A stretch of DNA of 38,052 nt from Gemmatimonadales bacterium. GTDB taxonomy: Bacteria; Gemmatimonadota; Glassbacteria; GWA2-58-10. Positions 304-26,825 of this stretch are shown here, piece by piece. A program made the position numbers and the translations under genes. Numbering within the stretch: position 1 is the first letter of the stretch; each line of letters starts with the position of its first letter. The notes under the pieces are model-generated. The model was given only the letters and a program-made list of their open reading frames with translations. It did not search any database and was not told the origin of the DNA. The DNA is taken from NCBI GenBank assembly GCA_024278175.1, contig JAJRTS010000097.1, forward strand, positions 1 through 38,052, written 5' to 3'.

Positions 304-2082
304 TCAATCTATTTTCCAATCATCATGCAGGTAATGGTCGAGCAATCTCGGCTGCATGAGTGTGTTGATGTCATCGAACCCGGAGTCAAGCCAGCCCTTG
401 CCAAACACGGTTGCCGTCCTGAAAACATCCGGTGTCAGGTAGCGGGTTTGGACCTTGAATGGTTCCATGCCCTCAATCCTGCTCCGTACCACACTCTCCG
501 GGATGTTGTTTTTCCAGGCAAGGATCCATCCCCACTCGCCGAAGCTCGGTACATTGTCATGATAGAGCAGGGTCTTGAATCGTGCGGCCCTGAGCGTCCT
601 GTTAATGCACAGGTAGCTCTCTTTGGCATGGTAGGGTGATGTCGCCTGGATAACAACCATGCCGCTCTCGGCCAGCAGCCGGTTAATCTTGAGATAGAAC
701 TCCTTGCTGTAGAGCTTGACGAGTTCTACCGAGCCGGGGTCCGGAAGATCGACAATAACGACGTTCCACTTATCCGTCGTCTTGCCGATAAACCTGTCGG
801 CATCGACATTGAAGACCTCCACGTACGCCACTCGCTCAACAACCTGATGCTGGCTCTTGTCAACTTTGCCTGTTTCCATGTAAATGGGCCTGACTTTTTT
901 CCCCCCGGCAGTGTCTGTTTTTTCTGAAGCTTGCGAAAACGGAGGCTGTTCTTTGCCGGATCGTGGGGCCGCCTGCATCAAGTGATCGGAAGCAACTCCC
1001 TGAGAAGCGCTCGCATGAACCCGTGCATCGGCGAAGGCATTGTTGTTGAGCCTCTTGATAACAGAGTCAGTAGAGCAAATCCTGATCATTTCCGGGTCAA
1101 GGTCCACCAGTGTGACGTGCTCGACATCTTTGTACTTGAGAACTTCCCGCAAGGCAAGGCCATCGCCTCCGCCCAGGATTAACACCCTTCGATGGCCCGG
1201 CACGAGATTCATTACCGGATGCACGAGCTGTTCGTGATAGATCTGCTCATCCGTGCTGCTGAACTGGAGATTGCCGTTGATGTACAAGCGATATTCATCA
1301 AGCGACCTGTTATATGTGATGACAGCTCTCTGGTACCTTGTCGTTTCTGAAAAAACGATTCTGTCATCGTACATTTTTTGCTCAAGGACCAGATTCCATC
1401 CGCGGTTGCGGGTGTAGCCGAACACGAGGGTGCCTGCCGTACAGGCAACGAGCAGCAAAGTACTTATCCTGTTCCGGACAACCTTCTTTGACAAGAAATA
1501 CCCGAATGTCAGCACGGCAACAAAAAAATTCAGCCCCGCCATCATGAAGCTGATTTCCGTAAGCGGAAAGTGCTTGAGCAGAACGTATGTCCAGACCAGC
1601 GCACCGGCGAAACATCCCAGGTAATCCAGGGAGTAAATGTTGGCAATGTTAATGCTCAGGGTTTTTGAATACTTCTCATTGATCCTCAACACCAGTGGGA
1701 TCTCAAAGCCGATCAGGAACCCGATTGACATTATGAAAAAGTACTGGACAACCTTGAAATGGTGCTCCAGCAAGCCAAAGGCTGCGTAGATTGCGGTCGG
1801 CGCAAAGCCACAGAGCAGCGCCAGGACTATCTCGATGAGGATAAACTTTTCGATGAGCCTGTTATCGCCCATGAATCTCTGCAGATAGCCGGCAAGTCCC
1901 ATCATGAGCAGCATCATTGCAATGATAATCGAGAATTGCTCGATGCTGTTGCCCAGGATGTAGGTGCTGACAGTACAGAGGATATACTCACTCACCAGCC
2001 CGCACGCTCCCGTGAAAAACATCGATGCGGCAAGCAGCATGGTGGGAACATTGAACTTGAACCTGGAGAGAAAGGCTCTCAC
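304..2082 (-). CDS. Membrane-anchored spermidine synthase-like protein (COG4262 type)
   Basis: 592 residues. About the first 225 residues form roughly seven hydrophobic membrane segments. The C-terminal part is an aminopropyltransferase/methyltransferase-fold domain with the nucleotide-binding GGGDG (304-308), the acidic VDLDP strand end (326-330) and a DLPDP motif (445-449) at the place of the catalytic Asp loop of SpeE. Known spermidine synthases transfer aminopropyl from decarboxylated AdoMet; whether this membrane version does so is not established. A polar, low-complexity stretch of about 60 residues (358-420) is inserted between two core strands, before the VEVFNVDAD segment. It is the last gene of the minus-strand block and lies 95 bp after the DUF350 gene. 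Proteins of this class occur with DUF350 and DUF4178 proteins in other bacteria, which fits the neighbours here. The family call is firm; the reaction is not. Confidence 0.85.
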   Translation of the reverse strand: MRAFLSRFKFNVPTMLLAASMFFTGACGLVSEYILCTVSTYILGNSIEQFSIIIAMMLLMMGLAGYLQRFMGDNRLIEKFILIEIVLALLCGFAPTAIYAAFGLLEHHFKVVQYFFIMSIGFLIGFEIPLVLRINEKYSKTLSINIANIYSLDYLGCFAGALVWTYVLLKHFPLTEISFMMAGLNFFVAVLTFGYFLSKKVVRNRISTLLLVACTAGTLVFGYTRNRGWNLVLEQKMYDDRIVFSETTRYQRAVITYNRSLDEYRLYINGNLQFSSTDEQIYHEQLVHPVMNLVPGHRRVLILGGGDGLALREVLKYKDVEHVTLVDLDPEMIRICSTDSVIKRLNNNAFADARVHASASQGVASDHLMQAAPRSGKEQPPFSQASEKTDTAGGKKVRPIYMETGKVDKSQHQVVERVAYVEVFNVDADRFIGKTTDKWNVVIVDLPDPGSVELVKLYSKEFYLKINRLLAESGMVVIQATSPYHAKESYLCINRTLRAARFKTLLYHDNVPSFGEWGWILAWKNNIPESVVRSRIEGMEPFKVQTRYLTPDVFRTATVFGKGWLDSGFDDINTLMQPRLLDHYLHDDWKID

Positions 2083-2177
2083 GGCAGTTCCTTTTCAGGG
2101 CTCCCCGCTGCCTGTGATGCTCTTTTCATAATCCACTTCTCCCAAAAGCGTTTAACGCAATTTTTTTCAACGCCCGC

Positions 2178-3029
2178 TTAAATCACGCCGGCAATAATTA
2201 TCGCCAGAGCCAGGATACAAGCTTGAGTGACTGCAACCGCCGCCACATTCTGCTCCCGCTCAACTGCAATCTGCAGCGTTGTGTGCGGGAGAAACAGCCA
2301 GTCGATGATCTTGCGGAAGAGCAGGAGCAGCAGGATGCCGTAGCCGGTGCTCAGGGCAAAGGATTTGATATCAACCAGCCAGCCCTGGAAATCACCGGTA
2401 ATGCTCGCACGCAGGATTATACCCATAGCAACGAGCATGCATCCAACGGCCAGACCGGCCGCGGGGTTGGCCATCTTCACTTGTTTTCTCACATTGAAGG
2501 AAGTGCTGAACTCATAGGCTTCGAAGAAGATCAGCAGCGATATCTGACCCAACGCAGCGAAGAGCATCGCACTGAGATAACCCTGAAGAATAGTTCCGCC
2601 GCCGCCGGTAAAGGCGCCGAACATGATTAAGCCCGTGGCGATATATGAGCCCGCCTCTATCAGGCCGACTGCCGCATTACCGGCCAGGGCTTCATCGTCA
2701 TTGCTGATGCCGCGCAGGATAATCGTGTCATTGAAAAACCGCGCGATCATCATCATCACCAGCACCAATGCACCATCAATCGCCAGCATTTTCAGGTCGT
2801 TGACGAAACCCGACGTTTCTCCGGCGAGAGCCGCGGACATGCCGATAGCTAAACCGAGGTACAGCCCGAAGCGTCTCAGACCCACGGCGATGTTGCTGTT
2901 CTGCTCGATTTCCCTGTCATCATCGAACTTCGTGGTTGCCAGATCACGCCATTTCTTGGCAATCCAGATGTAGGCGAGAACAACCGCGGCGTAAACGATG
3001 TAGCTGCCCAGAGTTTCGAGATAAGCCAT
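2178..3029 (-). CDS. DUF350 family membrane protein, two repeats
   Basis: 283 residues, almost entirely membrane helices (about eight). The two halves (about 10-140 and 150-283) look like tandem DUF350 units, each with a polar linker holding Asn and acidic residues (for example ISNDDEALAGNAAVGLIEAG near 130). DUF350 proteins are inner-membrane proteins of unknown activity, often found with PspA, DUF4178 or spermidine-synthase-like genes. The start is ATG at 3029, with a purine-rich GAGGGGA upstream. The gene sits between the secreted coiled-coil protein and the spermidine-synthase-like protein and is probably co-transcribed with both. I infer a membrane complex with the latter; no substrate can be read from the sequence. 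Confidence 0.85.
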   Translation of the reverse strand: MAYLETLGSYIVYAAVVLAYIWIAKKWRDLATTKFDDDREIEQNSNIAVGLRRFGLYLGLAIGMSAALAGETSGFVNDLKMLAIDGALVLVMMMIARFFNDTIILRGISNDDEALAGNAAVGLIEAGSYIATGLIMFGAFTGGGGTILQGYLSAMLFAALGQISLLIFFEAYEFSTSFNVRKQVKMANPAAGLAVGCMLVAMGIILRASITGDFQGWLVDIKSFALSTGYGILLLLLFRKIIDWLFLPHTTLQIAVEREQNVAAVAVTQACILALAIIIAGVI

Positions 3030-3121
3030 TGTGTAATCCCCTCTTTCGAAAAAAGAGTGAGAAAAATAGAAAACGAATCAAGTGCCGGAAGAATCCGACA
3101 GAGTGGAAAAGAGCAAGAAAA

Positions 3122-4699
3122 TCACTTCCCTCTTCCGCCAGGACCGCGCCCACGGGTGGCTCTCCCGGCTGCTCGTGTGGAGGGCGCCTGTGACCTGAAT
3201 CCTCCGCTCTTTGCAAACGTGCTGCCGGCATACCTTTGCCTGGTAGCCTTACTGTATGTGCCATAGCGATTTGGGTCACTGGCAGGACCATAGTAGGGTC
3301 TTTTCCCATAATAGTCCCGGCGCCAGCCCGACCAGTTATCATAGTAATAATACCTTCTGCCGCCGAACATCAGGTGGTAGAAGGCATAGGTTTCAAGAAA
3401 GCTCCATCTCCTCCTGCCGTCGGGGCCGGTTTCCCATCTCCCGTAACGGGGATTGCCGACCTTGTCCATCCCGGGAGGGAAGGCAACCTTGCTGACCTTT
3501 TCTTCGTATTGGCCGTAGGGTTTGGAGATGATGGTCATGCCGAGGTTGTTTTCATTGGCGTCAAAGATTTCCTCGGTGACTTGCCGCCAGTCGCCCCTGG
3601 TCTCTACGCCATTACGGGTCTCAATGTATTGGTGGTAGTACCTTGCCGGTGTATCGGAAACCCGGAATTCGGAATCATCATCGCCCCTCGGCCAGCCTTC
3701 CTGCCAGTTGATACCCAGTGCGTCCCACATGGGCTGGCTGATGCTGATCCTCCGCCCCCAGCCTCTCCGGCCTTTTGTGAATGCGGCAAAGGGTTGATCG
3801 CCAAGCGCGGCAAAATAATTGTAAGCCTCTTCGTTTACCTGGCGCGGGGCGTAGGTGTAATCGTGTTCTGTCGGGAAATCATAGTAGTTATTCCAGGTCG
3901 TTCTGCCCACCTGCACGTAATATTCAACGCGCATATCAGTCAGGCGCCTGGAATAACTCTGGCCGAGCTCGGCAATCCTGGCACGAAGCGCCTTGTCCTG
4001 GCTTTTGAGCTCGGCCAGATTTTTCGCCACGGTTTTGCAGCCATCCCCCAGCTTTGCGTAGTCAGGCTTGTCGGATTCGAGCTCCGACTGCGCGGTTTTC
4101 AGTGCCTGAACAGCTTGCTCATAGAGCTGCTTCGACGGTCCCAGCCTGCCTGTGAGATCATCCTTCTTATTGGGATAATCCGTCCGGGCTGTGTCCACAA
4201 CCGCGGCCAATGCCCGGTAAAGCGGGGTCAGTTCCGCCATTTCTGCCGTGGCTTTTTCAACCCATTCCGGTCCTTTTCCCCGGGCTTCTTTGAGGAACTC
4301 CATCCTTTGGCCGGGTTTGGCGGAAAGCGTTCTGGCTTCACGAAGGGCGTCCGTGATGCGCTTTAGCTGCGCCCGCAACTCATCAACCGTTTTCTTGTCG
4401 TTCTGTTCGATAAGCGGTTGGACCTTTTTCTCCAGGATGCTTCTCGCATCATCGATCCTGGCCAGTGCCCTGGAAAAATCTGCACTCCAGTCCTCCCGCT
4501 CACCATAAACCTCGAAAAACGATCTGTACTCATCGCTCCGCCGGAATTTCTCGAAATTTTCCCGTACTTCCTCAATCCTGGTTTGAGCCTGTTCGATCTG
4601 CCCGGGAGCATTCCCGGCCTGTTCTTTAACCGCGGCGGGCAGGCCGCAAGCAAGAGTTGCCGCTATGGTAAGGAGCAGCCACATTTTCATGCTTCGCAT
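3122..4699 (-). CDS. Secreted coiled-coil protein with Tyr/Arg/Gly-rich tail
   Basis: 525 residues. An N-terminal signal peptide (WLLLTIAATLACGLPAA, possibly a weak lipobox around Cys18) is followed by a long charged helical region rich in Glu, Lys, Leu and Arg (about 30-250) that should form coiled coil. Next is a region rich in Trp, Tyr and Asp (about 255-430), then a tail rich in Tyr, Arg and Gly ending GRGPGGRGK. I do not recognise the whole protein. The Gly/Arg tail recalls DUF4247 proteins, which I remember from DUF350/DUF4178 clusters of actinobacteria, but this is a weak resemblance. ATG 4699 is preceded by AAGGAG at good spacing and overlaps the end of the upstream gene; ATG 4690 would also fit. 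It probably acts on the outer face of the inner membrane together with the DUF350 protein. Confidence 0.7.
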   Translation of the reverse strand: MRSMKMWLLLTIAATLACGLPAAVKEQAGNAPGQIEQAQTRIEEVRENFEKFRRSDEYRSFFEVYGEREDWSADFSRALARIDDARSILEKKVQPLIEQNDKKTVDELRAQLKRITDALREARTLSAKPGQRMEFLKEARGKGPEWVEKATAEMAELTPLYRALAAVVDTARTDYPNKKDDLTGRLGPSKQLYEQAVQALKTAQSELESDKPDYAKLGDGCKTVAKNLAELKSQDKALRARIAELGQSYSRRLTDMRVEYYVQVGRTTWNNYYDFPTEHDYTYAPRQVNEEAYNYFAALGDQPFAAFTKGRRGWGRRISISQPMWDALGINWQEGWPRGDDDSEFRVSDTPARYYHQYIETRNGVETRGDWRQVTEEIFDANENNLGMTIISKPYGQYEEKVSKVAFPPGMDKVGNPRYGRWETGPDGRRRWSFLETYAFYHLMFGGRRYYYYDNWSGWRRDYYGKRPYYGPASDPNRYGTYSKATRQRYAGSTFAKSGGFRSQAPSTRAAGRATRGRGPGGRGK

Positions 4700-5304
4700 A
4701 ATGCTTTCTCCTTTTTCATAGAGGGTTCCCGGATTCGCCCAAACGAAAGAAAATCTGTTTCCGTAAAAACAACGGTATTCTCATTCGGGTACGAGTGAGC
4801 GGTTTTGGCAAATATTACTTCCTCCCGTTCATCGGTTCCAAGAATGACGATGGTTCTTGGCGCAACGGCTGATTTCCCGCCTGGAAACCGGAAATCCAGG
4901 CCGAGATTCCGGGGCACTGGTTTTTTCGCGGCCAGCCGCTCCATCTCCCGGAGTTCACCCGCTCCATCCTTTGAGCTGAGCATCCTCGAATTGAAGCGGT
5001 ATCTGCCTTTCCCGGCGAAGGTGAGTTCTGCTTCTCCACCGGCCTCCGCAAAGGGACCGTAGCTTATTTTCCTGCTCTCTGTTTTGACCCCGGAGCAGGC
5101 AAACACCTCATGGAAAACCAGGCCGGCAAACCTGAAACGGAAAATGTGGCTCGCTCCGATTATTGCCGCGTCCACGGAAGCACCCGCGGAGACCTCTATT
5201 CTTCCCGTGCTCAGAATTACGAACTGCTCCAGGTCCAAAGGGCCTACGACGACATTGAGCATGAGGTCGTAAGCGGATCGGTCCTGGTGGATTAATCCGC
5301 TCAA
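4687..5304 (-). CDS. DUF2617-like conserved hypothetical protein
   Basis: 205 residues, soluble, no signal peptide. The segment IIGASHIFRF followed by a Glu-Val-Phe-Ala-Cys stretch resembles the GASH...C core I associate with DUF2617 proteins, which occur beside DUF4178 and DUF350 genes; the match is from memory. The start is TTG at 5304-5302, overlapping the TGA of the DUF4178 gene and preceded by GGAGG six bases upstream, so the two genes look translationally coupled. At the other end it overlaps the start of the coiled-coil protein gene. Its function is unknown; the context points to a cytoplasmic partner of the DUF4178/DUF350 module. Confidence 0.65.
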   Translation of the reverse strand: MSGLIHQDRSAYDLMLNVVVGPLDLEQFVILSTGRIEVSAGASVDAAIIGASHIFRFRFAGLVFHEVFACSGVKTESRKISYGPFAEAGGEAELTFAGKGRYRFNSRMLSSKDGAGELREMERLAAKKPVPRNLGLDFRFPGGKSAVAPRTIVILGTDEREEVIFAKTAHSYPNENTVVFTETDFLSFGRIREPSMKKEKALCEA

Positions 5305-5969
5305 TTGCCACCTCCGATCACGATAACTTCGATGGTTTTGGGGTCAACCTTTTGCCCCAGGCTGACCTCGTAGTCCGGGTCTTCCTCATCCCCCCAGCCT
5401 TCGACGCCAAGGACCCGGTCGCCCTGTTCGTTCTCGAAGTCATAATAGAAGAAGTGAACGCCGCTCTTTTCCTCCTTGAAAAACAGGGCGTCACCATCGT
5501 CCTCGTACTCCAGGATTTCCCCATCGTATTCGATCTTCCCTTCGTCGTCTTCTTCGAAGCGGTCCAGGTCATCTCCGGTGAGTCCCGCGGAGCTTTTGCC
5601 CACAACCTGGAGAGCTTTCATCTTAAGGGTTTTGACTCCGATAAACACCTGCAGCCCATCGTCCTCTTCCCATTCGAGGAACATTTCCCGGCCGCTGTTC
5701 AGGCAGAGGACCTTGAGCTCAAACCACTGGTCGGCATTCTTCTTTTCGCGCCATTCTCCGCCTTTTTTCTCTGCTTCGGCGTAGCGGTAGAAAGCCAGGA
5801 CCTGATATGTTCTATCCTGGATTCCGTCCTTGATCCGAAAGTACGACCCGGGCCTCAGGTCCTTGACGCCGTACTTATGCCTTTCCCGCTCGGGCATTGG
5901 TGTCGGCATGGCATTGATCGCTCTGAGCCGCGGCTCGATGGATGGATCGACCCTGATTGGTACCGGCAT
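5301..5969 (-). CDS. DUF4178 domain protein
   Basis: 222 residues, very acidic in the C-terminal half. After a basic N-terminus comes a DUF4178-like segment: LRPGSYFRIKDGIQDRTYQV, then a Trp-Phe-Glu-Leu strand, then REMFLEWEEDDGLQVFIG (about 37-115). The rest is Asp/Glu-rich with WGDEEDPDYEV near the end. DUF4178 proteins are probably beta-barrel-like and cluster with DUF350, PspA and spermidine-synthase-like genes; no activity is known. The ATG has GGAGG four bases upstream (GGAGGTACTATG). It is the first gene of the five-gene run 5969-304. The 300-bp gap upstream suggests that this run has its own promoter. Confidence 0.75.
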   Translation of the reverse strand: MPVPIRVDPSIEPRLRAINAMPTPMPERERHKYGVKDLRPGSYFRIKDGIQDRTYQVLAFYRYAEAEKKGGEWREKKNADQWFELKVLCLNSGREMFLEWEEDDGLQVFIGVKTLKMKALQVVGKSSAGLTGDDLDRFEEDDEGKIEYDGEILEYEDDGDALFFKEEKSGVHFFYYDFENEQGDRVLGVEGWGDEEDPDYEVSLGQKVDPKTIEVIVIGGGN

Positions 5970-6270
5970 AGTACCTCCAGTTGATTATTACTAGGGGTTA
6001 CAACATAACATGCGTTTATAGTTGCGTTTGGACCGCCACATATTTGTAGACGATTTTCGGAAATTTTTCTAATCGTTTTACCCTTCGAAAAATGCAACTG
6101 CAACGAAACCTGCGTAGTAAATGCAAAGCCAGTCTTCCCCTGCCGGATCAGCCACGGGGAAGACTTATTTGCGGGGGGAATCCTCCGGATAAAAAAACTT
6201 GCCCGGCTTCGCTCCGTTACGGAAAATTCCGCCAACCCATGTTTTGCCCTGCCCGGTGGGCAGGGGTGGA
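5970..6270. other. Intergenic gap with two hairpins, downstream of telA
   Basis: No credible gene. It holds two stem-loops: 6131-6165 (10-bp perfect stem, AGTCTTCCCC with GGGGAAGACT) and 6247-6265 (8-bp perfect stem CCCTGCCC/GGGCAGGG, three-base loop, just after the telA stop). Neither is followed by a clear T-run on the minus strand, so they are only possible transcript ends for telA. The AT-rich stretch 5985-6110 probably carries the promoter of the DUF4178 operon, though I could not fix -35/-10 boxes. Confidence 0.5.
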
Positions 6271-7443
6271 TTACTCCTCCTCCTGCAGGGAATCGTGCAG
6301 GGCCTTGGCCCGGACCTCCAGCTTCTCGGACATGCCGCTGAGCTTTGCCATCCCCGCCTTGGCATCCTGGATGCCCTTTTCCTTCACCGCGGCGGACTCT
6401 TCCATCGCCGCCATGATATCATCAAAGGCTTCCTCGACCGCCGCCACCGCAAGCACCGGTTCGTTGAGGAGCTGGTTGATATCCGCCGTGCCCTCTCTGA
6501 GCGCCTTGGCATTGGCCTTGATCAGGCTCTCCGAGTACTCTTTGACAGCTTTGACGGCCTCGATTGTTTTCCTCTGCCTGGCCAGGGCGGCCTGGATCGC
6601 CAGGCCCACCATCACCAGGTTGGTCGTGATGGTTATCTGCCTCGTTACGACTTCACCAAGCTTCTCGTTGTTCTCGATAGTGGTATCGATGGAGAGGAAG
6701 AACTGCAGGTTTACCTGCTCGGCCATCGCCATGTCCTGCACCCTGGTGGCAACACGGTGGAGGATGGTCTGCAGCTTCCGTTTTTCCAGCGTATCCTCAA
6801 CCGTGGGGAGCACCTCCTCGATCTTCCGCCAGACCAACTGTCCGAGATATTTATTTTTCTTCACCTCCAACTGCTGGGTCTCAACCTTACCGTAGAGCTT
6901 CTCCAGCTCGATGTTGTCTTCGAGAAGGTTGTCCTGGCCCTTTTTCAGGCTGGCGGTGATTAAATTAATCTGATCCTTCGCGGTTTCGTATTTCTGCGAG
7001 ATCATGGCCAGCCTCTTACCCACCCCGGGAATCTTGCCGAAAAGCTTGGCGATCTTCCCGGGCTGTCCGATCACGTGGGGGTTAATCTCATCGAGCGCCG
7101 CTCTCATCTTTAACAGGTTGCTCGGGATGTCTCCTTCCTGACCCTCGAGTTTTCCCAGGATGTCGCCCATTCTGGTTTGCAGCAGCGCTACATTCTGGCT
7201 TGACATTTGTTGCGCTTCCATGCCCAGGCTGGTAATGCTCCTGGCCAGCTTGCGGTCATTGATGTTCTCCTTGAGCTGCTCCACAAGCTCTTTGGATTCA
7301 GCCTTGAGCTCCTCGTCATCCTCAGGCTTCAACCCCTTTGGCGCCACGGGGACCAGGAGCTGGTTTTCATCCTCGGTACCGGGGCCGCCCACTTCGGGAA
7401 TCTGAGCTTCGGGTGATTGTCCGTTGTTTTTTTCATCGGTCAT
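6271..7443 (-). CDS. telA: TelA/toxic anion resistance family protein
   Basis: 390 residues, soluble and mostly alpha-helical. The C-terminal half has the family signature: a run NLQFFLSIDTTIENNEKLGE followed by a hydrophobic helix with VMVGLAIQAALARQRK, then a helix of the AVKAVKEYSE type. The N-terminus (1-45) is acidic and probably disordered. The family (PF05816) is linked to tellurite and other envelope stresses and often sits beside xpaC, as here. The start ATG at 7443 has GGAG seven bases upstream. It lies 59 bp after the XpaC-like gene and the two surely form one operon. Helix-rich TelA proteins are thought to act at the inner face of the membrane; the exact role is unknown. Confidence 0.88.
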   Translation of the reverse strand: MTDEKNNGQSPEAQIPEVGGPGTEDENQLLVPVAPKGLKPEDDEELKAESKELVEQLKENINDRKLARSITSLGMEAQQMSSQNVALLQTRMGDILGKLEGQEGDIPSNLLKMRAALDEINPHVIGQPGKIAKLFGKIPGVGKRLAMISQKYETAKDQINLITASLKKGQDNLLEDNIELEKLYGKVETQQLEVKKNKYLGQLVWRKIEEVLPTVEDTLEKRKLQTILHRVATRVQDMAMAEQVNLQFFLSIDTTIENNEKLGEVVTRQITITTNLVMVGLAIQAALARQRKTIEAVKAVKEYSESLIKANAKALREGTADINQLLNEPVLAVAAVEEAFDDIMAAMEESAAVKEKGIQDAKAGMAKLSGMSEKLEVRAKALHDSLQEEE

Positions 7444-7502
7444 AATCTTTCTCCGGAAAAGTAAGTGGAATTGAAAAAAGACATTTTAAGGTTCGGAAGC
7501 AC

Positions 7503-8132
7503 TTAAGCTTCCACCGAGTCGGACAGGAACTTGCGTTTAATGAACGTGGTTCTCGTATCAAACGCGTCCAGGTTCTGATCTTCAACGATCCTGGCGATCT
7601 GATTCACTTCTTTGAGCAGGGCGTCCAGGGAGTCCAGCATCTCTCCCCTTTGCTGCTCACGACCTTCGGGTGTGAGGACAATATAACCGTTTATGAGCTT
7701 GGAGAGGTACTGCGAAGACATCTGGTTCACTGTAAATGTGAAATCAATCCCGGCGTACTTCGAGTTCAACTCAGGCAAAAGGGCAGTGAGTTTTTCAACG
7801 ATCTCTCCGGCCTTGGCAATCACATCCTCTGCAAGCGCTTCAATCTTCATCTTAAGCAAGAGGTCCGCAAGGCCGCCCAGCAAGGCATTCACTTTCTCGC
7901 TGGCCTTTGCTACAAGCTCTGCGTTGGCTCGCTGCCGCGCTTCTTCCGCCCGGATTTTCTCATCTTCCCTTTTCTCTTTGAAGATAAACGAGATCAGGAA
8001 TGCGAGCACGAACACAACCGCGAGGGTGATGGCTGCCACGATCAGCGTGAGCTTCACGATGAAAGTAACGCCAACGACTATCACGATTCCGATGCCAATC
8101 AAGACAGCAAAGAGTTTGCGGTTAATACTCAT
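7503..8132 (-). CDS. XpaC-like membrane protein, TelA partner
   Basis: 209 residues. Two hydrophobic segments at the N-terminus (about 8-27 and 29-50) are followed by a charged helix (EKREDEKIRAEEARQRANAE) and a cytoplasmic helical domain with LPELNSKYAGIDFTFTVNQ and LKEVNQIARIVED. This layout, and its place just before telA, match XpaC (PF10112, often misnamed a halogenated-substrate hydrolase). The sequence itself is diverged, so I give the family as likely and not certain. The start ATG has a strong AGGAGG eight bases upstream. It is the first gene of the minus-strand block and is divergent from the metal-efflux region. Confidence 0.65.
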   Translation of the reverse strand: MSINRKLFAVLIGIGIVIVVGVTFIVKLTLIVAAITLAVVFVLAFLISFIFKEKREDEKIRAEEARQRANAELVAKASEKVNALLGGLADLLLKMKIEALAEDVIAKAGEIVEKLTALLPELNSKYAGIDFTFTVNQMSSQYLSKLINGYIVLTPEGREQQRGEMLDSLDALLKEVNQIARIVEDQNLDAFDTRTTFIKRKFLSDSVEA

Positions 8133-8343
8133 AATGCCTGCCTCCTGGAAGCTTGTGGAAAAATAAGGCGAAATTGCTGGTTTTCACCAGCTCAAAATAG
8201 CTCTCCCTGATTATTCATAAAAACTCAAAAAGGTTTTTTTCTCAAAGAAAAGCATGGCCCGGAATTCGATTTATTGCTTAAGATTTTGTTTGAAGATATC
8301 CGATTATCTGCTGGCTTATAGCTTACGGAACTTATCCGTCGTC

Positions 8344-8355
8344 AGAACATGTTCT
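8344..8355. promoter_or_regulatory. Palindromic operator candidate
   Basis: AGAACATGTTCT is a perfect 12-bp palindrome in the divergent gap. The two-base spacing between GAAC and GTTC is too short for a Gram-positive LexA box. No regulator gene is adjacent, so the protein that might bind is unknown. Confidence 0.3.
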
Positions 8356-8508
8356 AACAGCTGACGTTCAAAATTAAGGTGTGCCTCTCAGCAATTGCAA
8401 CTGATTTTTCTCTTTTCAGCTCCGTCCTCAAAGTTTCCCGCTTAACCATGTCCCTCAGTGACAGCCGCCGCCCTCTGCTTGAATTAACAATCTCACGACC
8501 CAATCTTC

Positions 8509-9573: not shown

Positions 9574-9915
9574 ATGAAAGAGATAAAAGCGTATATCAAA
9601 CCCCATAAGCTCGTAGACGTGACTCTGGCCTTGCACAAGGTCCATCAGCTGACCGGAATGAGCGTGGTCGATGTGAGGGGGTTCGGCCGCGAAAGGGCCA
9701 AGGATGCTCCGCATCGAATCGTTGAGGACCTGGTGGATTACGTCCCGCATGTAAAGATCGAGATTGTCTGCCTGGATGAGCTCGTTGAGCGTATCATTTC
9801 GGTGATTGAGCAAAATGCGCACACGGGCCTGCACGGTGATGGCAAAATATACGTGACCGATGTGAGTGCCGCCGTGCGCATCTCGACCGGTGAACATGGG
9901 GAAAGCGCTGTTTGA
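9574..9915 (+). CDS. PII-like protein of the metal-efflux (PII-NG) group, copy 1
   Basis: 113 residues, the full length of a PII protein. It has the N-terminal KEIKAYIKPHKL strand, VRGFGRERA at the base of the T-loop, DYVPHVKIEIV, HTGLHGDGKIYV (B-loop) and a C-terminal VRISTGEHGESAV. At the T-loop position of the uridylylated Tyr51 of GlnB there is a His, and Gln39 is replaced by Glu. PII proteins of this kind (PII-NG, Sant'Anna and colleagues 2009) are encoded beside heavy-metal pumps and probably tune export. The gene starts 20 bp after the decayed pump fragment and ends 145 bp before the adaptor gene. It appears intact although its own pump is lost. Confidence 0.9.
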   Translation: MKEIKAYIKPHKLVDVTLALHKVHQLTGMSVVDVRGFGRERAKDAPHRIVEDLVDYVPHVKIEIVCLDELVERIISVIEQNAHTGLHGDGKIYVTDVSAAVRISTGEHGESAV

Positions 9916-10060
9916 ACCGGAGGTTCGATGGCTGAGATCTGAAGGAGAGAATTCGCCTCCGCTGACCGATTAGCGGTCGGGGAGTGTGCCATTTTGCAGC
10001 CCGCGCAGGGCTGGTTTCAAGCCTCTGCCAAGGCGAGGCGACCCAGTTAAGGAGGAAATA

Positions 10061-11257
10061 GTGGCAGTACACAACAGATGGTGCGCCATGGTTGCGGCCG
10101 TGGTTCTACTCTCGGGAAGCTTTGTGATGCTTTCGGCCGCCGAGCAGGGCGTAGCCCGGGAAGAAAGTGCTCAAGACAAGAGCGGTGAGGGCGGGGAAAC
10201 CCTGATCCGGTTAACGCCGGAGCATATCCGGGTTGCAGGCATTAAGGTCGCTGCGGTGGAGGAGAAGGAATTCTTCCAGGAGATCAAGGCCGCCGGGGAA
10301 GTGGTGCTCAACGCTGATCGCACGGCCCATGTCGGCCCCCGCATTCCGGGCCGGATCGTAAAGATCAGCGCGTTTCTGGGAGATAAGGTTAAGGCCGGCC
10401 AGAGCCTGCTAATTATCGACAGTGTGGAACTGGGGCATACCAAGGCCGAGTTCCATAAGGCCTGGGCGCGAATGGAGCTGATGAAAAGAAACTACGAGCG
10501 GGAGAAACGTCTGTTCGAGTCGCGGATTACCTCCGAACGTGTGATGCTCGAGGCCAGGACGGCATACGAGGAGGCGCGCATCCAGTTCGAGACCACCAGG
10601 GAGACACTTTTAATCTTTGGAGTACCCTCGGAGCAGATCGACCGGATGCGCGCGTCTCACGAAGGCGAAGGCACCACCCTGCTGCAGGTGCCGGCGCCGT
10701 TTGCGGGCATCATTGTGGAAAAACACGCCACCAACGGCGAGGTAATTGATCCGTCCGATATCCTTTACAAAATCTCTGATCTTTCAACGGTCTGGGTGGA
10801 GACGCATATCTACGAAAAGGACCTGCGCTTCATCCGCAAAGGGAGCCCGGCCACACTGACCGTGTCGGCGTACCCCGATGAAGTTTTCAAGGGTTCGATC
10901 ACATATATCAGCGATCTGCTGGATGAGGCGACCCGCACGGTGAAACTCCGGGTGGAAGTGGCCAATCCCGAGCGCAAGCTGCGCTCGGGGATGTTCGCCG
11001 ATGTCAGTGTACATTCATTCCATTCCGAAGACCGCGTCCGCAAGCCCGCCGTGCCCGCGGTCGCCCTCCAGAATAGCGGAGAGGACTGGATCGTATACGT
11101 TACCGAGGACGGCCTGAGCTTCAAAGAGCGCAAGGTCCGGATCGGCGAGCGGCAGAACGATTATGTGGCGGTGTTCTCCGGGCTGAAACCGGGTGAGCGG
11201 GTTGCTACTGAGGGAAGTTTTTTCATCAAATCTGAGGCTGGAAAGGAAGCTTTCTAA
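10061..11257 (+). CDS. CzcB/CusB-type periplasmic adaptor of an RND metal pump
   Basis: 398 residues from GTG 10061, chosen because AAGGAGG (10049-10055) sits six bases upstream; an ATG at 9986 would add 25 residues without a ribosome site. A hydrophobic signal (MVAAVVLLSGSFVMLSAA) is followed by a barrel-sandwich domain (VGPRIPGRIVKISAFLGDKV), an alpha-hairpin, the second lipoyl half (VPAPFAGIIVEKHATNGEV), a beta-barrel (LSTVWVETHIYEKDL) and a membrane-proximal domain. It bridges the inner-membrane pump and an outer-membrane channel in the periplasm. The pump gene follows 43 bp downstream. No outer-membrane factor gene lies nearby, so that part must be supplied from elsewhere. Confidence 0.92.
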   Translation: MAVHNRWCAMVAAVVLLSGSFVMLSAAEQGVAREESAQDKSGEGGETLIRLTPEHIRVAGIKVAAVEEKEFFQEIKAAGEVVLNADRTAHVGPRIPGRIVKISAFLGDKVKAGQSLLIIDSVELGHTKAEFHKAWARMELMKRNYEREKRLFESRITSERVMLEARTAYEEARIQFETTRETLLIFGVPSEQIDRMRASHEGEGTTLLQVPAPFAGIIVEKHATNGEVIDPSDILYKISDLSTVWVETHIYEKDLRFIRKGSPATLTVSAYPDEVFKGSITYISDLLDEATRTVKLRVEVANPERKLRSGMFADVSVHSFHSEDRVRKPAVPAVALQNSGEDWIVYVTEDGLSFKERKVRIGERQNDYVAVFSGLKPGERVATEGSFFIKSEAGKEAF

Positions 11258-11300
11258 GCCACTCCTGTGGGAGTTAACACCAATATCGGATAATTGATTT

Positions 11301-14300
11301 ATGGATAAATTCATTGACTTTGTCGTGCGCCAGCGTCTGCTGGTCGTGCTTTTCGCTCTGATCGTGGCGGGCAGCGGATTCCTGGCGCTGCGGCGTCTTC
11401 CTATCGATGCGTTTCCCGATGTAACGCCCGTGCTCGTGCAGATTTTCACCGAGGCCGAGGGCCTGGCCCCCGAAGAGGTGGAAAAACTGATCACCTACCC
11501 CATCGAGGTCTCGATGAACGGCCTGCCCGGGATCACGGACATCCGGTCGCTCTCCACTTTCGGGCTCTCGGTGGTTTCGGTTTACTTCGATGATAAGACA
11601 GACATCTATTTTGCCCGCCAGCTCGTGTTCGAACGCCTGCAGGCAGCGCGGGAAGAGATCCCCGCGGGGCTGGGCGACCCGGAAATGGGGCCGATCACCA
11701 CGGGCCTGGGCCAGGTCTACCAGTATTTCGTGGAAGGCGAGGGCTATGAGTTGATGGAGTTGCGCACGATCGAGGACTGGATTGTCAAATACCAGCTCCG
11801 CACCGTTCCGGGTGTGACGGAAGTCCTCAGTTTCGGCGGGCTTGTCAAGCAATTCCAGATCCGGATCGACCCGAATCTGCTGCTGAAGTACGGGTTGACG
11901 CTTGATGAATTGGTGGAGGCCGTGAAGGATAATAACCGGAACACGGGCGGAAGTTTTCTGGTGCGGGGAGCCGAAGAGTATCTGGTCCGGGGCCTCGGGT
12001 GGGTTCGCGCGGTGGATGACATCGCCAACATCAAGATCGCCTCCAGAGACGGAGGGATCCCGATCTATGTGCGTAACGTGGCGGAAGTGGTCCTTGGCCC
12101 GGAAATCCGGCGGGGCATAGTCACCCGCAACGGAGAAGGGGAAGTGGTCAGCGGAATCGTGCTCAAGCTGATCGGCCAGAACACCACCGAGGTTATCGAT
12201 AACATCAAGCGCAAGATCACCCAGATCAATGCGCAACTACCCGAGGGTGTGCGGGTCGTGCCCTACTACGACCAGGCCGACCTCGTGGATAAAGCGGTCG
12301 GTACGGTGAAAGACGCCCTGTTTGAGGGGGCCGTGCTGATTGTCATCGTGCTGTTTATCTTCCTCTGGAATGTCCGGAGCGCCCTGGTGGTGCTCAGCAC
12401 GCTCCCCCTGTCGGCGCTGGTGTCGTTTATTCTGATGGATTATGTCGGCATGTCGGCTAACCTGATGTCTCTGGGAGGGCTGGCCATCGGGGTCGGCATG
12501 ATGGTTGACGGGTCGATTGTGATGGTGGAGAATATTTTCCGCCACCTGACAGAGGGGGAAGGGGAGCGGGTCGGCATTCTTCCCGCGGTAGGCCGTGCGG
12601 CCCAGGAGGTGGCGCGGCCTATCGTTTTCGCCATCGGGATCATCATCATTGTTTTTTTGCCGCTTTTCACGCTTCAGGAAGTGGAGGGAAAACTGTTCGC
12701 CCCAATGGCGTTCACGATCAGCTTTGCCATGCTGGGCTCGCTTATCTTTTCGCTTACCCTGGTGCCGGTGCTCTGCACTTTCGTCTTGAAAGGACGGCTG
12801 TCGGAGAAAGAAAGTCCGGTGCTGAGGCTGCTCAAGCGCTTCTACATCCCGATGTTGCATTGGGCGATCCACCGGCGTAAGACTACCGTGGCGGTTGCCT
12901 CGGGCGCCCTGGTAATCAGCCTGTTCCTGGTGCCTTTCCTGGGCACGGAGTTCGTCCCGATCCTGGAAGAGGGTTCAATGCTGGTCAGGGCCACGATGGC
13001 CCCGAGTACCTCCCTGGTCCAGGCGAAAGAAACCACCCTGAAGCTGGAGAAAATCCTGCTCGGCTTTCCCGAGGTGAAAAATGTACTTTCCAAGGTGGGC
13101 CGGGCTGAGATCGGCGGTGACCCGGAGCCGGTCAACAACTCGGAGATATTTGTCGAGCTGGCTCCCCCCGAGCAATGGACCACGGCGCGAACCAAGGAGG
13201 GGTTGATTGAAAAAATGAGGGAAAAACTCCTCCAGTTCCCCGGGATCCTGCTCAATGTTTCCCAGCCGATCGCCATCCGGGTGGATGAGTTGATCTCAGG
13301 GGTGAAAGCCCAGCTTGCGATCAAGATCTTCGGGGATGATCTGGAAGTGCTGATCCAGAAGGCCGGCGAGGTCCAGCGAGTGATTTCAGGAGTTGCGGGA
13401 GGAGCCGACCTTCAGGTGGAACAGGTGGGGGGGCAACCCCAGGTGCAGGTGGCTATCGACCGGGGCAAGCTCGCCCGCTACGGGATCAACGTCTCCGAGG
13501 TTCAGGACGTGATCCGCACTGCGATCGGCGGCAGCACCGCGGGCCAGGTGTTCGAGGGCCAGCGGCGTTTCGATATTTTCATCCGCCTCAAGCAGAGTTT
13601 CCGCAACGATGTGAAAGCCATTGGAAACATTCTGGTAAGTGCTCCCAACGGCAGCCGCATCCCCTTGAGCCAGCTTGCCGAGATCCAAACGATGGTGGGC
13701 CCCAAACAGATCAGCCGTGAGAACAACCGGCGCAGGGTCGTTATCCAGTGCAACATCAGGGATCGCGACATGGGGAGTTTTGTGGCCGAAGCCCGGCGGC
13801 TCGTGAAAGAGCAAGTAGACCTGCCGGCGGGTTATCTCGTTACCTGGGGCGGGCAGTTCGAGAATCAGCAACGGGCAATGAAACGGCTGATCGTTATCGT
13901 TCCGTTGACCGTGTTCCTGATTTTCATCATGCTCTTTTCCGCGTTCAACTCGGTCCGCAATGCGTTGCTGATCGTCCTGAACGTTCCCTTTGCCATGACC
14001 GGGGGCATCGTGGCGCTCTTTTGCACCGGGCTCTATCTGAGCGTACCGGCATCCGTGGGTTTTATCGCCCTCTTCGGTGTGGCCGTGCTCAACGGCGTGG
14101 TCATGGTGTCCTGCATCAACCAGCTCCGGGCCGAGGGATTGAGCCTGGAGGAAGCGGTGGTTCATGGCTCCGAACTCAGGCTGAGGCCGGTGATGATGAC
14201 CGCGCTGGTTGCCAGCCTCGGGCTGATTCCGCTCCTCTTTTCCAGCGGTATCGGCTCGGAGGTGCAGCGTCCTTTGGCCACGGTGGTGGTCGGCGGACTG

Positions 14301-14384
14301 ATCACTTCTACCCTCTTGACACTTTTCGTGCTTCCCACGCTTTACGGATGGTTTGAACAGAAAGCCGAGGAAATCGAGTTGTAG
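11301..14384 (+). CDS. CzcA/CusA-family heavy-metal RND efflux pump
   Basis: 1027 residues, full length for the HME-RND family. It has the N-terminal helix, the PIDAFPDVTPV and EVEKLITYPIE motifs, two large periplasmic loops and twelve membrane helices. Helix 4 carries MMVDGSIVMVEN with Asp403 and Glu410. The first Asp of the Zn-type DFG..VDG motif is absent (GGLAIGVG instead), so the sequence is closer to CusA-like members than to CzcA itself. The metal cannot be fixed from this. It uses the proton gradient to drive metal ions out through the adaptor encoded just upstream. A PII-like gene follows after 52 bp. The C-terminus is the region matched by the pseudogene at 9229-9553. Confidence 0.93.
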   Translation: MDKFIDFVVRQRLLVVLFALIVAGSGFLALRRLPIDAFPDVTPVLVQIFTEAEGLAPEEVEKLITYPIEVSMNGLPGITDIRSLSTFGLSVVSVYFDDKTDIYFARQLVFERLQAAREEIPAGLGDPEMGPITTGLGQVYQYFVEGEGYELMELRTIEDWIVKYQLRTVPGVTEVLSFGGLVKQFQIRIDPNLLLKYGLTLDELVEAVKDNNRNTGGSFLVRGAEEYLVRGLGWVRAVDDIANIKIASRDGGIPIYVRNVAEVVLGPEIRRGIVTRNGEGEVVSGIVLKLIGQNTTEVIDNIKRKITQINAQLPEGVRVVPYYDQADLVDKAVGTVKDALFEGAVLIVIVLFIFLWNVRSALVVLSTLPLSALVSFILMDYVGMSANLMSLGGLAIGVGMMVDGSIVMVENIFRHLTEGEGERVGILPAVGRAAQEVARPIVFAIGIIIIVFLPLFTLQEVEGKLFAPMAFTISFAMLGSLIFSLTLVPVLCTFVLKGRLSEKESPVLRLLKRFYIPMLHWAIHRRKTTVAVASGALVISLFLVPFLGTEFVPILEEGSMLVRATMAPSTSLVQAKETTLKLEKILLGFPEVKNVLSKVGRAEIGGDPEPVNNSEIFVELAPPEQWTTARTKEGLIEKMREKLLQFPGILLNVSQPIAIRVDELISGVKAQLAIKIFGDDLEVLIQKAGEVQRVISGVAGGADLQVEQVGGQPQVQVAIDRGKLARYGINVSEVQDVIRTAIGGSTAGQVFEGQRRFDIFIRLKQSFRNDVKAIGNILVSAPNGSRIPLSQLAEIQTMVGPKQISRENNRRRVVIQCNIRDRDMGSFVAEARRLVKEQVDLPAGYLVTWGGQFENQQRAMKRLIVIVPLTVFLIFIMLFSAFNSVRNALLIVLNVPFAMTGGIVALFCTGLYLSVPASVGFIALFGVAVLNGVVMVSCINQLRAEGLSLEEAVVHGSELRLRPVMMTALVASLGLIPLLFSSGIGSEVQRPLATVVVGGLITSTLLTLFVLPTLYGWFEQKAEEIEL

Positions 14385-20760: not shown

Positions 20761-21127
20761 CTAGGCCTCCATTTGTTTTAGCTCAGGCATCCGGAAGTCA
20801 GTTATCTTAAATTTTATCATCAGCGATATTTTTGTGAATAATGCAAGTTAACTAGAAGCTGTTTCATAACCTTAAATGCAGGACAACCCCCGCCTGCTCT
20901 CAGGCAGGCACCCCCTTTGCTAAGGGGGAATTTTCGGTCGGCGTTTTTGCCGCGGTGGAACGGAGTTTTGCGGTTTCGATCCCCCTTAAAAAAAGGAGAC
21001 ACAGGGGGTTGTGCTTTAAGGAATTACCCGGTAACAGGCGAAAGCAAAAAAAAACCAGTTATGAAACAGCTTATATTCAAAAGTGATCGTTTTACTCTCT
21101 ATCTTATGAATTACGGGGTAATGGGGT
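20761..21127. other. Intergenic region holding a MITE-like element
   Basis: No gene is seen. Most of the gap is the inverted-repeat element at 20856-21072; the rest is AT-rich sequence that probably includes the promoter of the minus-strand GH20-like gene. Confidence 0.6.
20856..21072. mobile_element. MITE-like element, 217 bp, perfect 15-bp terminal inverted repeats
   Basis: AAGCTGTTTCATAAC (20856-20870) and its exact complement (21058-21072) bound a sequence without coding content. Inside are runs of CCCCC/GGGGG arranged as further imperfect inverted repeats. A second copy of one end lies at 37850 onward, in the opposite orientation. No target-site duplication is obvious. Confidence 0.75.
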
Positions 21128-22233: not shown

Positions 22234-22340
22234 TGTCAAGGGCCGTTTTGGAGCACAATGAGTCAACAACGATTATCAGGAGTCGAAGCTGCTATCTATT
22301 AATTTTCAATATGTTAGAGTCGAAACGGCTTGCCTTGCCC
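22234..22340 (-). repeat. 107-bp repeat element with conserved ends, copy 1
   Basis: Read on the minus strand it begins GGGCAAGGCAAGCCGTTT and ends AACGGCCCTTGACA. Both ends occur in the same order at 26636-26743 on the plus strand, at nearly the same distance (107 against 108 bp), while the middle differs. The outer TTGTCAAGGGC/GCCCTTGACAA (22233-22243, 22337-22347) form an inverted repeat. Confidence 0.6.
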
Positions 22341-22373
22341 TTGACAAGCAACGGGGTAAAACTTTTCACTCAA

Positions 22374-22402
22374 GGGCGTTGAATGTCTTTATTTCAACGC
22401 CC
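22374..22402 (-). terminator. Stem-loop after the transglutaminase-like gene
   Basis: GGGCGTTGAA (22374-22383) and TTCAACGCCC (22393-22402) form a perfect 10-bp stem with a 9-base loop, immediately beyond the stop codon at 22405. No clear T-run follows on the minus strand, so termination is only probable. Confidence 0.45.
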
Positions 22403-22404
22403 CT

Positions 22405-26551: not shown

Positions 26552-26635
26552 TTTATTTGAACCGGCAGGAGGGGCGCCCTCAGTAAAATATTCAGCACCC
26601 TCAAATCAAATATTTCGCTTGGTTGAGCCGCCCAG

Positions 26636-26743
26636 GGGCAAGGCAAGCCGTTTTATTGCCGTTTTTGCCATTTGTTTTATTTCAAGCAGTTAGATTGCTC
26701 ATGCCGGCTGAAAGCCGGCAACAGCGGGGAACGGCCCTTGACA
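26636..26743 (+). repeat. 108-bp repeat element with conserved ends, copy 2
   Basis: It starts GGGCAAGGCAAGCCGTTT and ends AACGGCCCTTGACA, the same ends as copy 1 (22234-22340, minus). The interior is unrelated and contains the hairpin at 26702-26720. It lies in what would be the transcribed leader of the GH4 operon. Confidence 0.55.
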
Positions 26744-26825
26744 GCCCTGGCGCTTAGTGAAAATCTCGTTGTTATCAACGGCAAACTCGATTCCAGGATG
26801 CAGGGACCGGTAAAAAGGAGAGCAG

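What the first reader, a model, noticed from the sequence alone, without database searches (positions are those of the whole stretch)
304..8132. TelA/XpaC joined to a DUF4178-DUF2617-DUF350-aminopropyltransferase-like set
Seven minus-strand genes combine two stress modules of unknown mechanism: a TelA pair and a polyamine-synthase-like membrane set. Within the second, three gene junctions overlap or nearly do, which suggests a stoichiometric complex. A secreted coiled-coil protein with a Tyr/Arg/Gly tail adds an outer part. A membrane modification system using a decarboxylated-AdoMet-like donor is one reading.
Basis: partly seen in the sequence, partly recalled or inferred. Interest (0 to 1): 0.6.

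Follow-up and report, generated by a model that had tools for sequence, protein, structure and literature searches.

The report
TelA-linked outward-facing aminopropyltransferase operon
Seven neighbouring bacterial genes form a genuinely conserved envelope-stress unit, in which a membrane enzyme of the polyamine-making kind appears to face outward beside a secreted protein that always ends in glycine-lysine, suggesting that the enzyme tags that lysine, a protein modification I found no report of.

Summary
The seven genes are real and belong together. The same set (membrane aminopropyltransferase SpeE2, a small TM protein, TelA, DUF4178, a coiled-coil lipoprotein, DUF350) occurs as one tight operon on an Alteromonas plasmid and in a MAG labelled Bacteroidota, with AdoMet decarboxylase (SpeD) added and DUF2617 missing. 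In a 31-sequence tree the three TelA-linked SpeE2s form one clade (100/98). In related operons the TelA pair's place is taken by the CesT/Tir-PspA dyad described by Ravi et al. 2024, so this is a TelA variant of a known system.

Two general features emerged. (1) SpeE2 has 7 TM helices, and its charge pattern places the intact catalytic domain outside the cytoplasm. (2) The secreted or anchored partner ends in Gly-Lys-COOH in 44 of 45 unique copies of two partner families (background 3/355), in the window's own copy, and in unrelated ~60-residue TM proteins at all 13 Gemmatimonadota SpeE2 loci. The sibling E. coli operon encodes a peptide-spermidine ligase, and its partner ends -GG.

Best mechanism: SpeE2 aminopropylates the partner's C-terminal lysine. 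Partnership and tail are shown; topology is predicted; reaction and donor supply are inferred. No AdoMet decarboxylase was found in this genome, the main weakness.

The parts
304..2082 (-). SpeE2: membrane aminopropyltransferase (PRK03612 family), 592 aa, 7 TM helices then an aminopropyltransferase domain
   Evidence: NCBIfam NF002956 603 bits over cut-off 472; AlphaFold pLDDT 85.7, seven long N-terminal helices; fold matches spermidine synthases and aminopropyltransferases E 5e-16
1375..2049 (-). SpeE2 membrane domain (residues 12-236), predicted N-in with the C-terminal domain outside
   Evidence: AlphaFold helices; K+R per loop 3,0,3,1,3,1,4 in the window protein; 28 of 30 homologues have 7 predicted TM segments with a similar pattern
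739..750 (-). catalytic D-x-P-D motif (D445, P447, D448) of SpeE2
   Evidence: invariant in 30 aligned homologues together with Q251, D278, E279, Y282, H283, G304, D307, D329, D427
838..1005 (-). disordered insertion in the Rossmann domain of SpeE2 (residues ~360-415)
   Evidence: pLDDT under 50; shorter or absent in homologues
2178..3029 (-). DUF350 (YjfL-type), double-length 283-aa form
   Evidence: PF03994 two stretches, 140.8 bits
3122..4699 (-). exported coiled-coil protein (probable lipoprotein; Cys18) with Tyr/Arg/Gly tail ending GRGK
   Evidence: no Pfam family; homologue in Alteromonas 1.3e-27 and in Flavobacteriales PspA-type operons; lipobox clear in relatives, imperfect here
3125..3127 (-). 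C-terminal lysine codon of the exported protein (proposed modification site)
   Evidence: partner proteins end GK in 36/37 and 8/8 unique relatives versus 3/355 background
4687..5304 (-). DUF2617, predicted beta-sandwich protein
   Evidence: PF10936 51.8 bits over 22.3; overlaps both neighbours
5301..5969 (-). DUF4178
   Evidence: PF13785 38.6 bits over 25
5970..6270 (-). 301-nt gap with two strong hairpins (possible attenuator or processing site; could carry its own promoter)
   Evidence: fold z-score -2.7; no terminator- or promoter-like match on the minus strand within it
6271..7443 (-). TelA
   Evidence: PF05816 158.4 bits over 30; all-helical model, low overall confidence (pLDDT 60.7)
7503..8132 (-). 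small N-terminal-TM helical protein, XpaC-like at best; positional counterpart of the 169-170 aa protein beside TelA in Alteromonas and L086
   Evidence: phmmer 8e-7 to the Alteromonas protein in an 8-sequence set; PF10112 below cut-off

Best explanation
The locus is one functional unit: a TelA-type variant of the PspA/CesT-SpeE2-DUF350-DUF4178 envelope-stress operons. SpeE2 is an aminopropyltransferase whose catalytic domain sits outside the cytoplasmic membrane. Its acceptor is the epsilon-amino group of the C-terminal lysine of the exported partner protein (3122-4699 here); lysine's butylamine side chain is chemically like putrescine, the usual acceptor. The donor is decarboxylated AdoMet, made by SpeD in the relatives and passed across the membrane by the SpeE2 TM domain and/or DUF350. 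The resulting cationic tail would bind or stabilise the stressed envelope. TelA with its TM partner does on the cytoplasmic face what CesT/Tir-PspA does in sister operons. Shown: gene partnership, shared clade, intact active site, invariant GK terminus. Predicted: topology. Inferred: the reaction, the donor route, the roles of TelA, DUF350, DUF4178 and DUF2617.
For: Same gene set in Alteromonas NZ_CP018025 and L086, tightly spaced. TelA-linked SpeE2s form one clade, 100/98. SpeE2 loci of the PspA type keep DUF350, a GK protein, CesT, PspA and often SpeD; 16 of 17 SpeE2 genomes searched whole have no TelA, the exception being the one with the TelA operon. Catalytic residues invariant, fold confident. 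Positive-inside pattern with 7 TM puts the catalytic domain outside, on the side of the lipoprotein. C-terminal GK: 36/37 plus 8/8 against 3/355, 13/13 Gemmatimonadota loci plus Ensifer against 0/1125 background ORFs, with all four Gly codons, both Lys codons, three stops and gaps of -4 to 299 nt to DUF350, so it is a protein-level constraint. Sibling E. coli operon yjfIJKLMC pairs PspA and DUF350 with a peptide-spermidine ligase and a partner ending -GG.
Against: No AdoMet decarboxylase (PF02675) found in this genome (97% complete), although the family rings in 8 control genomes and in one same-family genome, so the donor is unexplained here. Decarboxylated AdoMet is cytosolic, and no transporter function has been shown for DUF350 or the TM domain. 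Topology rests on hydropathy, charge and a model without a membrane. A conserved C-terminal lysine could serve binding or anchoring instead. TelA shows no sequence or fold kinship to PspA. Only three TelA-linked loci are known to me.
Confidence: 0.4

Rival explanations
1. SpeE2 makes free polyamines (spermidine-like) at or outside the membrane; the GK-tailed protein is a polyamine or envelope sensor/binding protein, not a substrate, and the unit tunes membrane stability by polyamine level.
For: Active site retains the residues of small-amine aminopropyltransferases; Ravi et al. [quoted passage not shown]
Against: Does not explain why unrelated partner proteins all end exactly in GK; no reason for an outward catalytic domain with an intracellular amine acceptor.
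Confidence: 0.27
2. Membrane lipid modification: SpeE2 aminopropylates an amine-bearing lipid headgroup, and the cationic tail protein binds anionic lipid or surface polymer.
For: Multi-TM enzyme next to a DUF350 membrane protein; envelope-stress context of PspA and TelA (PMC12791056).
Against: The active site is that of soluble amine enzymes, with no lipid-binding feature tested or seen; GK end unexplained.
Confidence: 0.15
3. SpeE2's catalytic domain is cytoplasmic (TM7 re-entrant or not spanning) and it modifies a cytoplasmic target; the GK tail marks something else, such as a degradation or assembly signal.
For: Its donor is made in the cytoplasm; lysine and arginine also occur after TM7 (2-6 in the 25 residues after it).
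Against: TM7 is hydrophobic in nearly all homologues and modelled as a full helix (residues 205-236); loops 2, 4 and 6 carry the positive charges.
Confidence: 0.13
4. TelA and its partner merely neighbour an unrelated DUF4178-SpeE2 set; the join is a chance of gene order.
For: 301-nt gap with hairpins in the window; in the genomes sampled around L086's, TelA otherwise sits without SpeE2, several times beside TerD-like genes.
Against: Same partnership in two other genomes with 8-11 nt gaps or 1-nt overlap around TelA and a shared SpeE2 clade; TelA otherwise essentially absent from the phylum.
Confidence: 0.05

Closest known systems
CesT/Tir-PspA + 7TM-SpeE + 8TM DUF350 + DUF4178 + lipoprotein operon (second group of Ravi et al. 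2024, PMC11237479)
   Same: 7TM aminopropyltransferase, double-length DUF350, DUF4178, exported/lipoprotein partner
   Different: TelA plus a TM protein in place of CesT/Tir-PspA; DUF2617 added; long coiled-coil N-terminal half on the lipoprotein; TelA does not occur in that paper's main text
Actinobacterial DUF4247-DUF2617 variant (Ravi et al.: CCP45395.1, CCP45394.1)
   Same: DUF2617 next to the exported protein, without PspA
   Different: The exported protein is not DUF4247; TelA present
E. coli yjfIJKLMC and ygiBC with peptide-spermidine ligases YjfC/YgiC
   Same: yjfIJKLMC: DUF2170 (a CesT/Tir domain per Ravi et al.)-PspA, DUF350, tail-bearing DUF1190 protein and an amine-adding enzyme; ygiBC: DUF1190 plus ligase only
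   Different: Amide ligation by an ATP-grasp enzyme, partner ends -GG rather than -GK; no SpeE2, no TelA
TelA/YaaN with XpaC (Listeria lmo1966-1967, Bacillus)
   Same: TelA family member beside a small TM protein; a Listeria lmo1967 mutant is reported as more sensitive to nisin (cited in PMC12791056)
   Different: There not described with an aminopropyltransferase set; XpaC model below cut-off here

Membership tests
PRK03612 membrane polyamine aminopropyltransferase (NF002956) | full-length profile match over cut-off | tested here: met
   603 bits against 472
PRK03612 membrane polyamine aminopropyltransferase (NF002956) | aminopropyltransferase active-site residues | tested here: met
   Q251, D278, E279, Y282, H283, GxGDG, D329, D427, D445, D448 conserved
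PRK03612 membrane polyamine aminopropyltransferase (NF002956) | aminopropyl transfer activity and acceptor | not testable with these tools
   needs enzyme assay
CesT/Tir-PspA-SpeE2 operon (Ravi group 2) | 7TM-fused spermidine-synthase-like protein | tested here: met
CesT/Tir-PspA-SpeE2 operon (Ravi group 2) | DUF350 and DUF4178 genes | tested here: met
CesT/Tir-PspA-SpeE2 operon (Ravi group 2) | CesT/Tir-PspA dyad | tested here: not met
   none in the operon; no PspA (PF04012) in this genome although the family rings in 9 controls
CesT/Tir-PspA-SpeE2 operon (Ravi group 2) | Ctha_1186-domain lipoprotein | tested here: inconclusive
   homologous lipoproteins sit in PspA-type Flavobacteriales operons, but the Ctha_1186 model was not at hand
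DUF4247-DUF2617 variant | DUF2617 | tested here: met
   51.8 bits
DUF4247-DUF2617 variant | DUF4247 exported protein | tested here: not met
   no DUF4247 match for 3122-4699
TelA (PF05816) | profile match over cut-off | tested here: met
   158.4 bits against 30
XpaC (PF10112) | profile match over cut-off | tested here: not met
   15.9 bits against 29.8
Ter tellurite/stress operon | TerD/TerC-type neighbours of TelA | tested here: not met
   no Ter genes among the neighbours scanned; TerD-like proteins do flank TelA in L125 and L132 (by eye) and annotated TerD in L052
PspA/ESCRT-III superfamily (for TelA) | sequence or fold kinship | tested here: inconclusive
   hhalign probability 0.3%; Foldseek has no hit under 1e-3 and no PspA among the top 50, but model confidence is low

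The most novel reading that the evidence does not exclude
SpeE2 systems carry out protein aminopropylation outside the cell membrane: an outward-facing aminopropyltransferase adds one or more aminopropyl units to the C-terminal lysine of an exported partner, across many phyla, with interchangeable cytoplasmic modules (CesT/Tir-PspA or TelA). The E. coli peptide-spermidine ligase operons would be the amide-forming counterpart acting on -GG tails. This would be a bacterial post-translational polyamine modification and would give TelA and PspA a common biochemical setting.
Probability: 0.3. Interest if true: 0.92.

Novelty: new variant of a known kind. Interest (0 to 1): 0.7.

Why it matters
TelA and DUF350 are widespread families without a known mechanism, and I know of no established in-vivo acceptor for membrane SpeE proteins. 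Linking TelA to the PspA-SpeE2 system says that they work in one process, and the invariant C-terminal Gly-Lys of otherwise unrelated partner proteins gives a concrete, cheap test of what that process is: look for +57.06 Da on the last lysine. If true, it defines a new kind of bacterial protein modification and a reason why polyamine genes recur in envelope-stress operons.

Tried and rejected
Contig misbinning: not supported; the contig carries dispersed repeats shared with many other contigs of the genome and with its genus mate and has even GC (53.4 and 53.8%). TelA as a hidden PspA: no sequence or fold support. GK tail as a Shine-Dalgarno artefact of the next gene: rejected, because gaps reach 299 nt, 35 of 46 are over 15 nt or have no DUF350 next, and codons vary. 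Common descent of the two large GK partner families: only a weak local profile match (probability 45%). c3 family as DUF4178: no. No solved structure matches TelA, DUF350, DUF2617 or the exported protein by sequence. Genome scan with TelA alone found no relative; viral contigs gave none; TelA search in 388 genomes of the phylum of Pelagicoccus gave none. AdoMet decarboxylase class 2 search was uninformative, since no control rang. DUF4247 tails in Actinobacteria could not be reached. Rfam: no match in the window.
Full report
What is there. The seven minus-strand ORFs exist at the stated coordinates: a small TM protein 7503-8132, TelA 6271-7443, DUF4178 5301-5969, DUF2617 4687-5304, an exported coiled-coil protein 3122-4699, DUF350 2178-3029 and a membrane aminopropyltransferase 304-2082. 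Five pass curated cut-offs in Pfam or NCBIfam. XpaC does not (15.9 against 29.8 bits). Only two junctions overlap, by 4 and 13 nt; the others are 59, 301, 92 and 95 nt. The 301-nt gap between TelA and DUF4178 holds strong hairpins, with no terminator- or promoter-like match on that strand, so co-transcription is open.

Where it lies. The genome is a Gemmatimonadota MAG; the phylum is inferred because a same-phylum genome's contig of 1,106,233 bases equals the Gemmatirosa kalamazoonensis plasmid NZ_CP007129. TelA occurs over the family cut-off in 1 of 298 genomes of the phylum, this one. SpeE2 over cut-off occurs in 14 of 150, but the 13 others have only a short DUF350 (mostly ~70 aa, up to 118) and no TelA, DUF2617 or coiled-coil relative by my profiles. 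The unit was therefore probably acquired horizontally. The contig itself shares dispersed repeats with many contigs of the same genome and with its genus mate and has even GC, so misbinning is unlikely.

Is the join real? Yes. Alteromonas mediterranea plasmid NZ_CP018025 carries SpeE2-SpeD-small TM protein-TelA-DUF4178-exported coiled-coil protein-DUF350; each counterpart is detectable (SpeE2 1e-135, exported protein 1e-27, TelA 4e-21, DUF350 8e-19, DUF4178 3e-8, small protein 8e-7; these E-values are for an 8-sequence set). A MAG labelled Crocinitomicaceae (L086) has the same order. Spacing there is at most 25 nt or short overlaps. In a maximum-likelihood tree of 31 SpeE2s the three TelA-linked ones form one clade, 100/98 support and all bootstrap trees, in spite of long branches: an old, jointly inherited unit. 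Only three such loci are known to me; searches in 395 genomes of L086's class and 388 of the phylum of Pelagicoccus added none.

What TelA replaces. In 44 other SpeE2 loci from Thermodesulfobacteriota, Verrucomicrobiota, Calditrichota, Flavobacteriales and others, a DUF350 gene lies close to SpeE2, usually with an exported protein between or beside them; where the contig reaches far enough, CesT/Tir, PspA and often SpeD follow. Ravi et al. 2024 (PMC11237479) described these operons and a DUF4247-DUF2617 variant; TelA does not occur in the paper's main text. Flavobacteriales operons hold CesT-PspA, DUF4178, a homologue of the window's exported protein, DUF350, SpeD and SpeE2: the window's set with PspA in place of TelA. 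Of 17 SpeE2 genomes searched whole, TelA occurs only in the one with the TelA operon, and this genome has no PspA. TelA thus takes the place of PspA without being its homologue as far as I can see (the TelA model has low confidence).

Two features that suggest mechanism. First, SpeE2: AlphaFold gives a confident model (pLDDT 85.7) with seven long N-terminal helices followed by an aminopropyltransferase fold. Catalytic and donor-site residues are conserved in 30 homologues. Positive charges lie mainly in loops 0, 2, 4 and 6, so the N terminus is inside and the catalytic domain is predicted outside. Second, the exported partner: it ends in Gly-Lys in 36 of 37 unique members of one family and 8 of 8 of the other (plus the window, GRGK), against 3 of 355 other neighbours. 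In Gemmatimonadota all 13 SpeE2 loci carry an unrelated ~60-aa single-TM protein ending GK just upstream, as does Ensifer (ending SGK), against 0 of 1125 more distant ORFs; a 48-aa Novosphingobium protein ends HK. The constraint is on protein: four Gly codons, two Lys codons, three stops, gaps of -4 to 299 nt to the next gene.

Interpretation. A lysine side chain is a butylamine, like putrescine, the classical acceptor of spermidine synthase (established chemistry). The simplest account of an outward aminopropyltransferase beside proteins with an invariant last lysine is that this lysine is aminopropylated. A parallel exists in E. coli: yjfIJKLMC combines a PspA protein, DUF350, a tail-bearing DUF1190 protein ending -GG and YjfC, annotated as a peptide-spermidine ligase (Pederick et al. 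2023, known to me through its citation in PMC12568646 and PMC12270671). There a polyamine could be joined to a C-terminal carboxylate; here an aminopropyl group to a C-terminal lysine. That symmetry is my inference. Ravi et al. mention aminopropylation of other substrates only in general terms.

Limits. No AdoMet decarboxylase was found in this genome, so the donor is unexplained here, though SpeD is in both other TelA operons. How decarboxylated AdoMet would reach an outer active site is unknown; DUF350 or the SpeE2 TM domain is a guess. The topology is a prediction. The small partners have positive tails and their orientation is not certain; the lipoprotein-type ones should be outside. I therefore hold the functional unit at about 0.9, the TelA-for-PspA reading at about 0.7 and lysine aminopropylation at about 0.4.

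Noticed in passing
L034-L046 (e.g. L037 7819-8004), L050 5711-5947, L142 4527-4673: Small ~48-78 aa single-TM proteins just upstream of DUF350/SpeE2, ending in GK or HK; conserved core PRSVRDNPGAYRSxYY in Gemmatimonadota.
   Followed up: yes
L145 7388-8026, L146 1745-2416 (E. coli yjfM, ygiB): Both DUF1190 proteins next to peptide-spermidine ligases end in -GG after an RGGYG/RGGFG-containing tail resembling the GK tails.
   Followed up: partly
window ~20852-21075, ~22313-22408, ~26570-26748, 8337-8472: Intergenic repeat families dispersed over many contigs of this genome and its genus or family mates; one copy lies just upstream of the operon. No Rfam match.
   Followed up: partly
window 9574-14384: P-II/DUF3240-like gene directly followed by CusB-like and CusA-like RND efflux genes, divergent from the operon.
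   Followed up: no
L092 13895-15199 and relatives (cluster c8): AAA ATPase with AAA_lid_6 domain after SpeD in Verrucomicrobiota SpeE2 operons; its N-terminal part looks by eye like a TerB-type domain.
   Followed up: no
L092 11265-12377 and relatives (cluster c4): Ion channel with RCK/TrkA domains in PspA-type SpeE2 operons; lacking in the TelA-type operons.
   Followed up: no
L104, L105, L107: Flavobacteriales with two SpeE2 paralogues, the second linked to an oxidoreductase-like protein (c12) and a membrane protein (c13) rather than DUF350.
   Followed up: no
window 31129-33759: 876-aa ORF without any Pfam match, amid carbohydrate-degradation genes.
   Followed up: no
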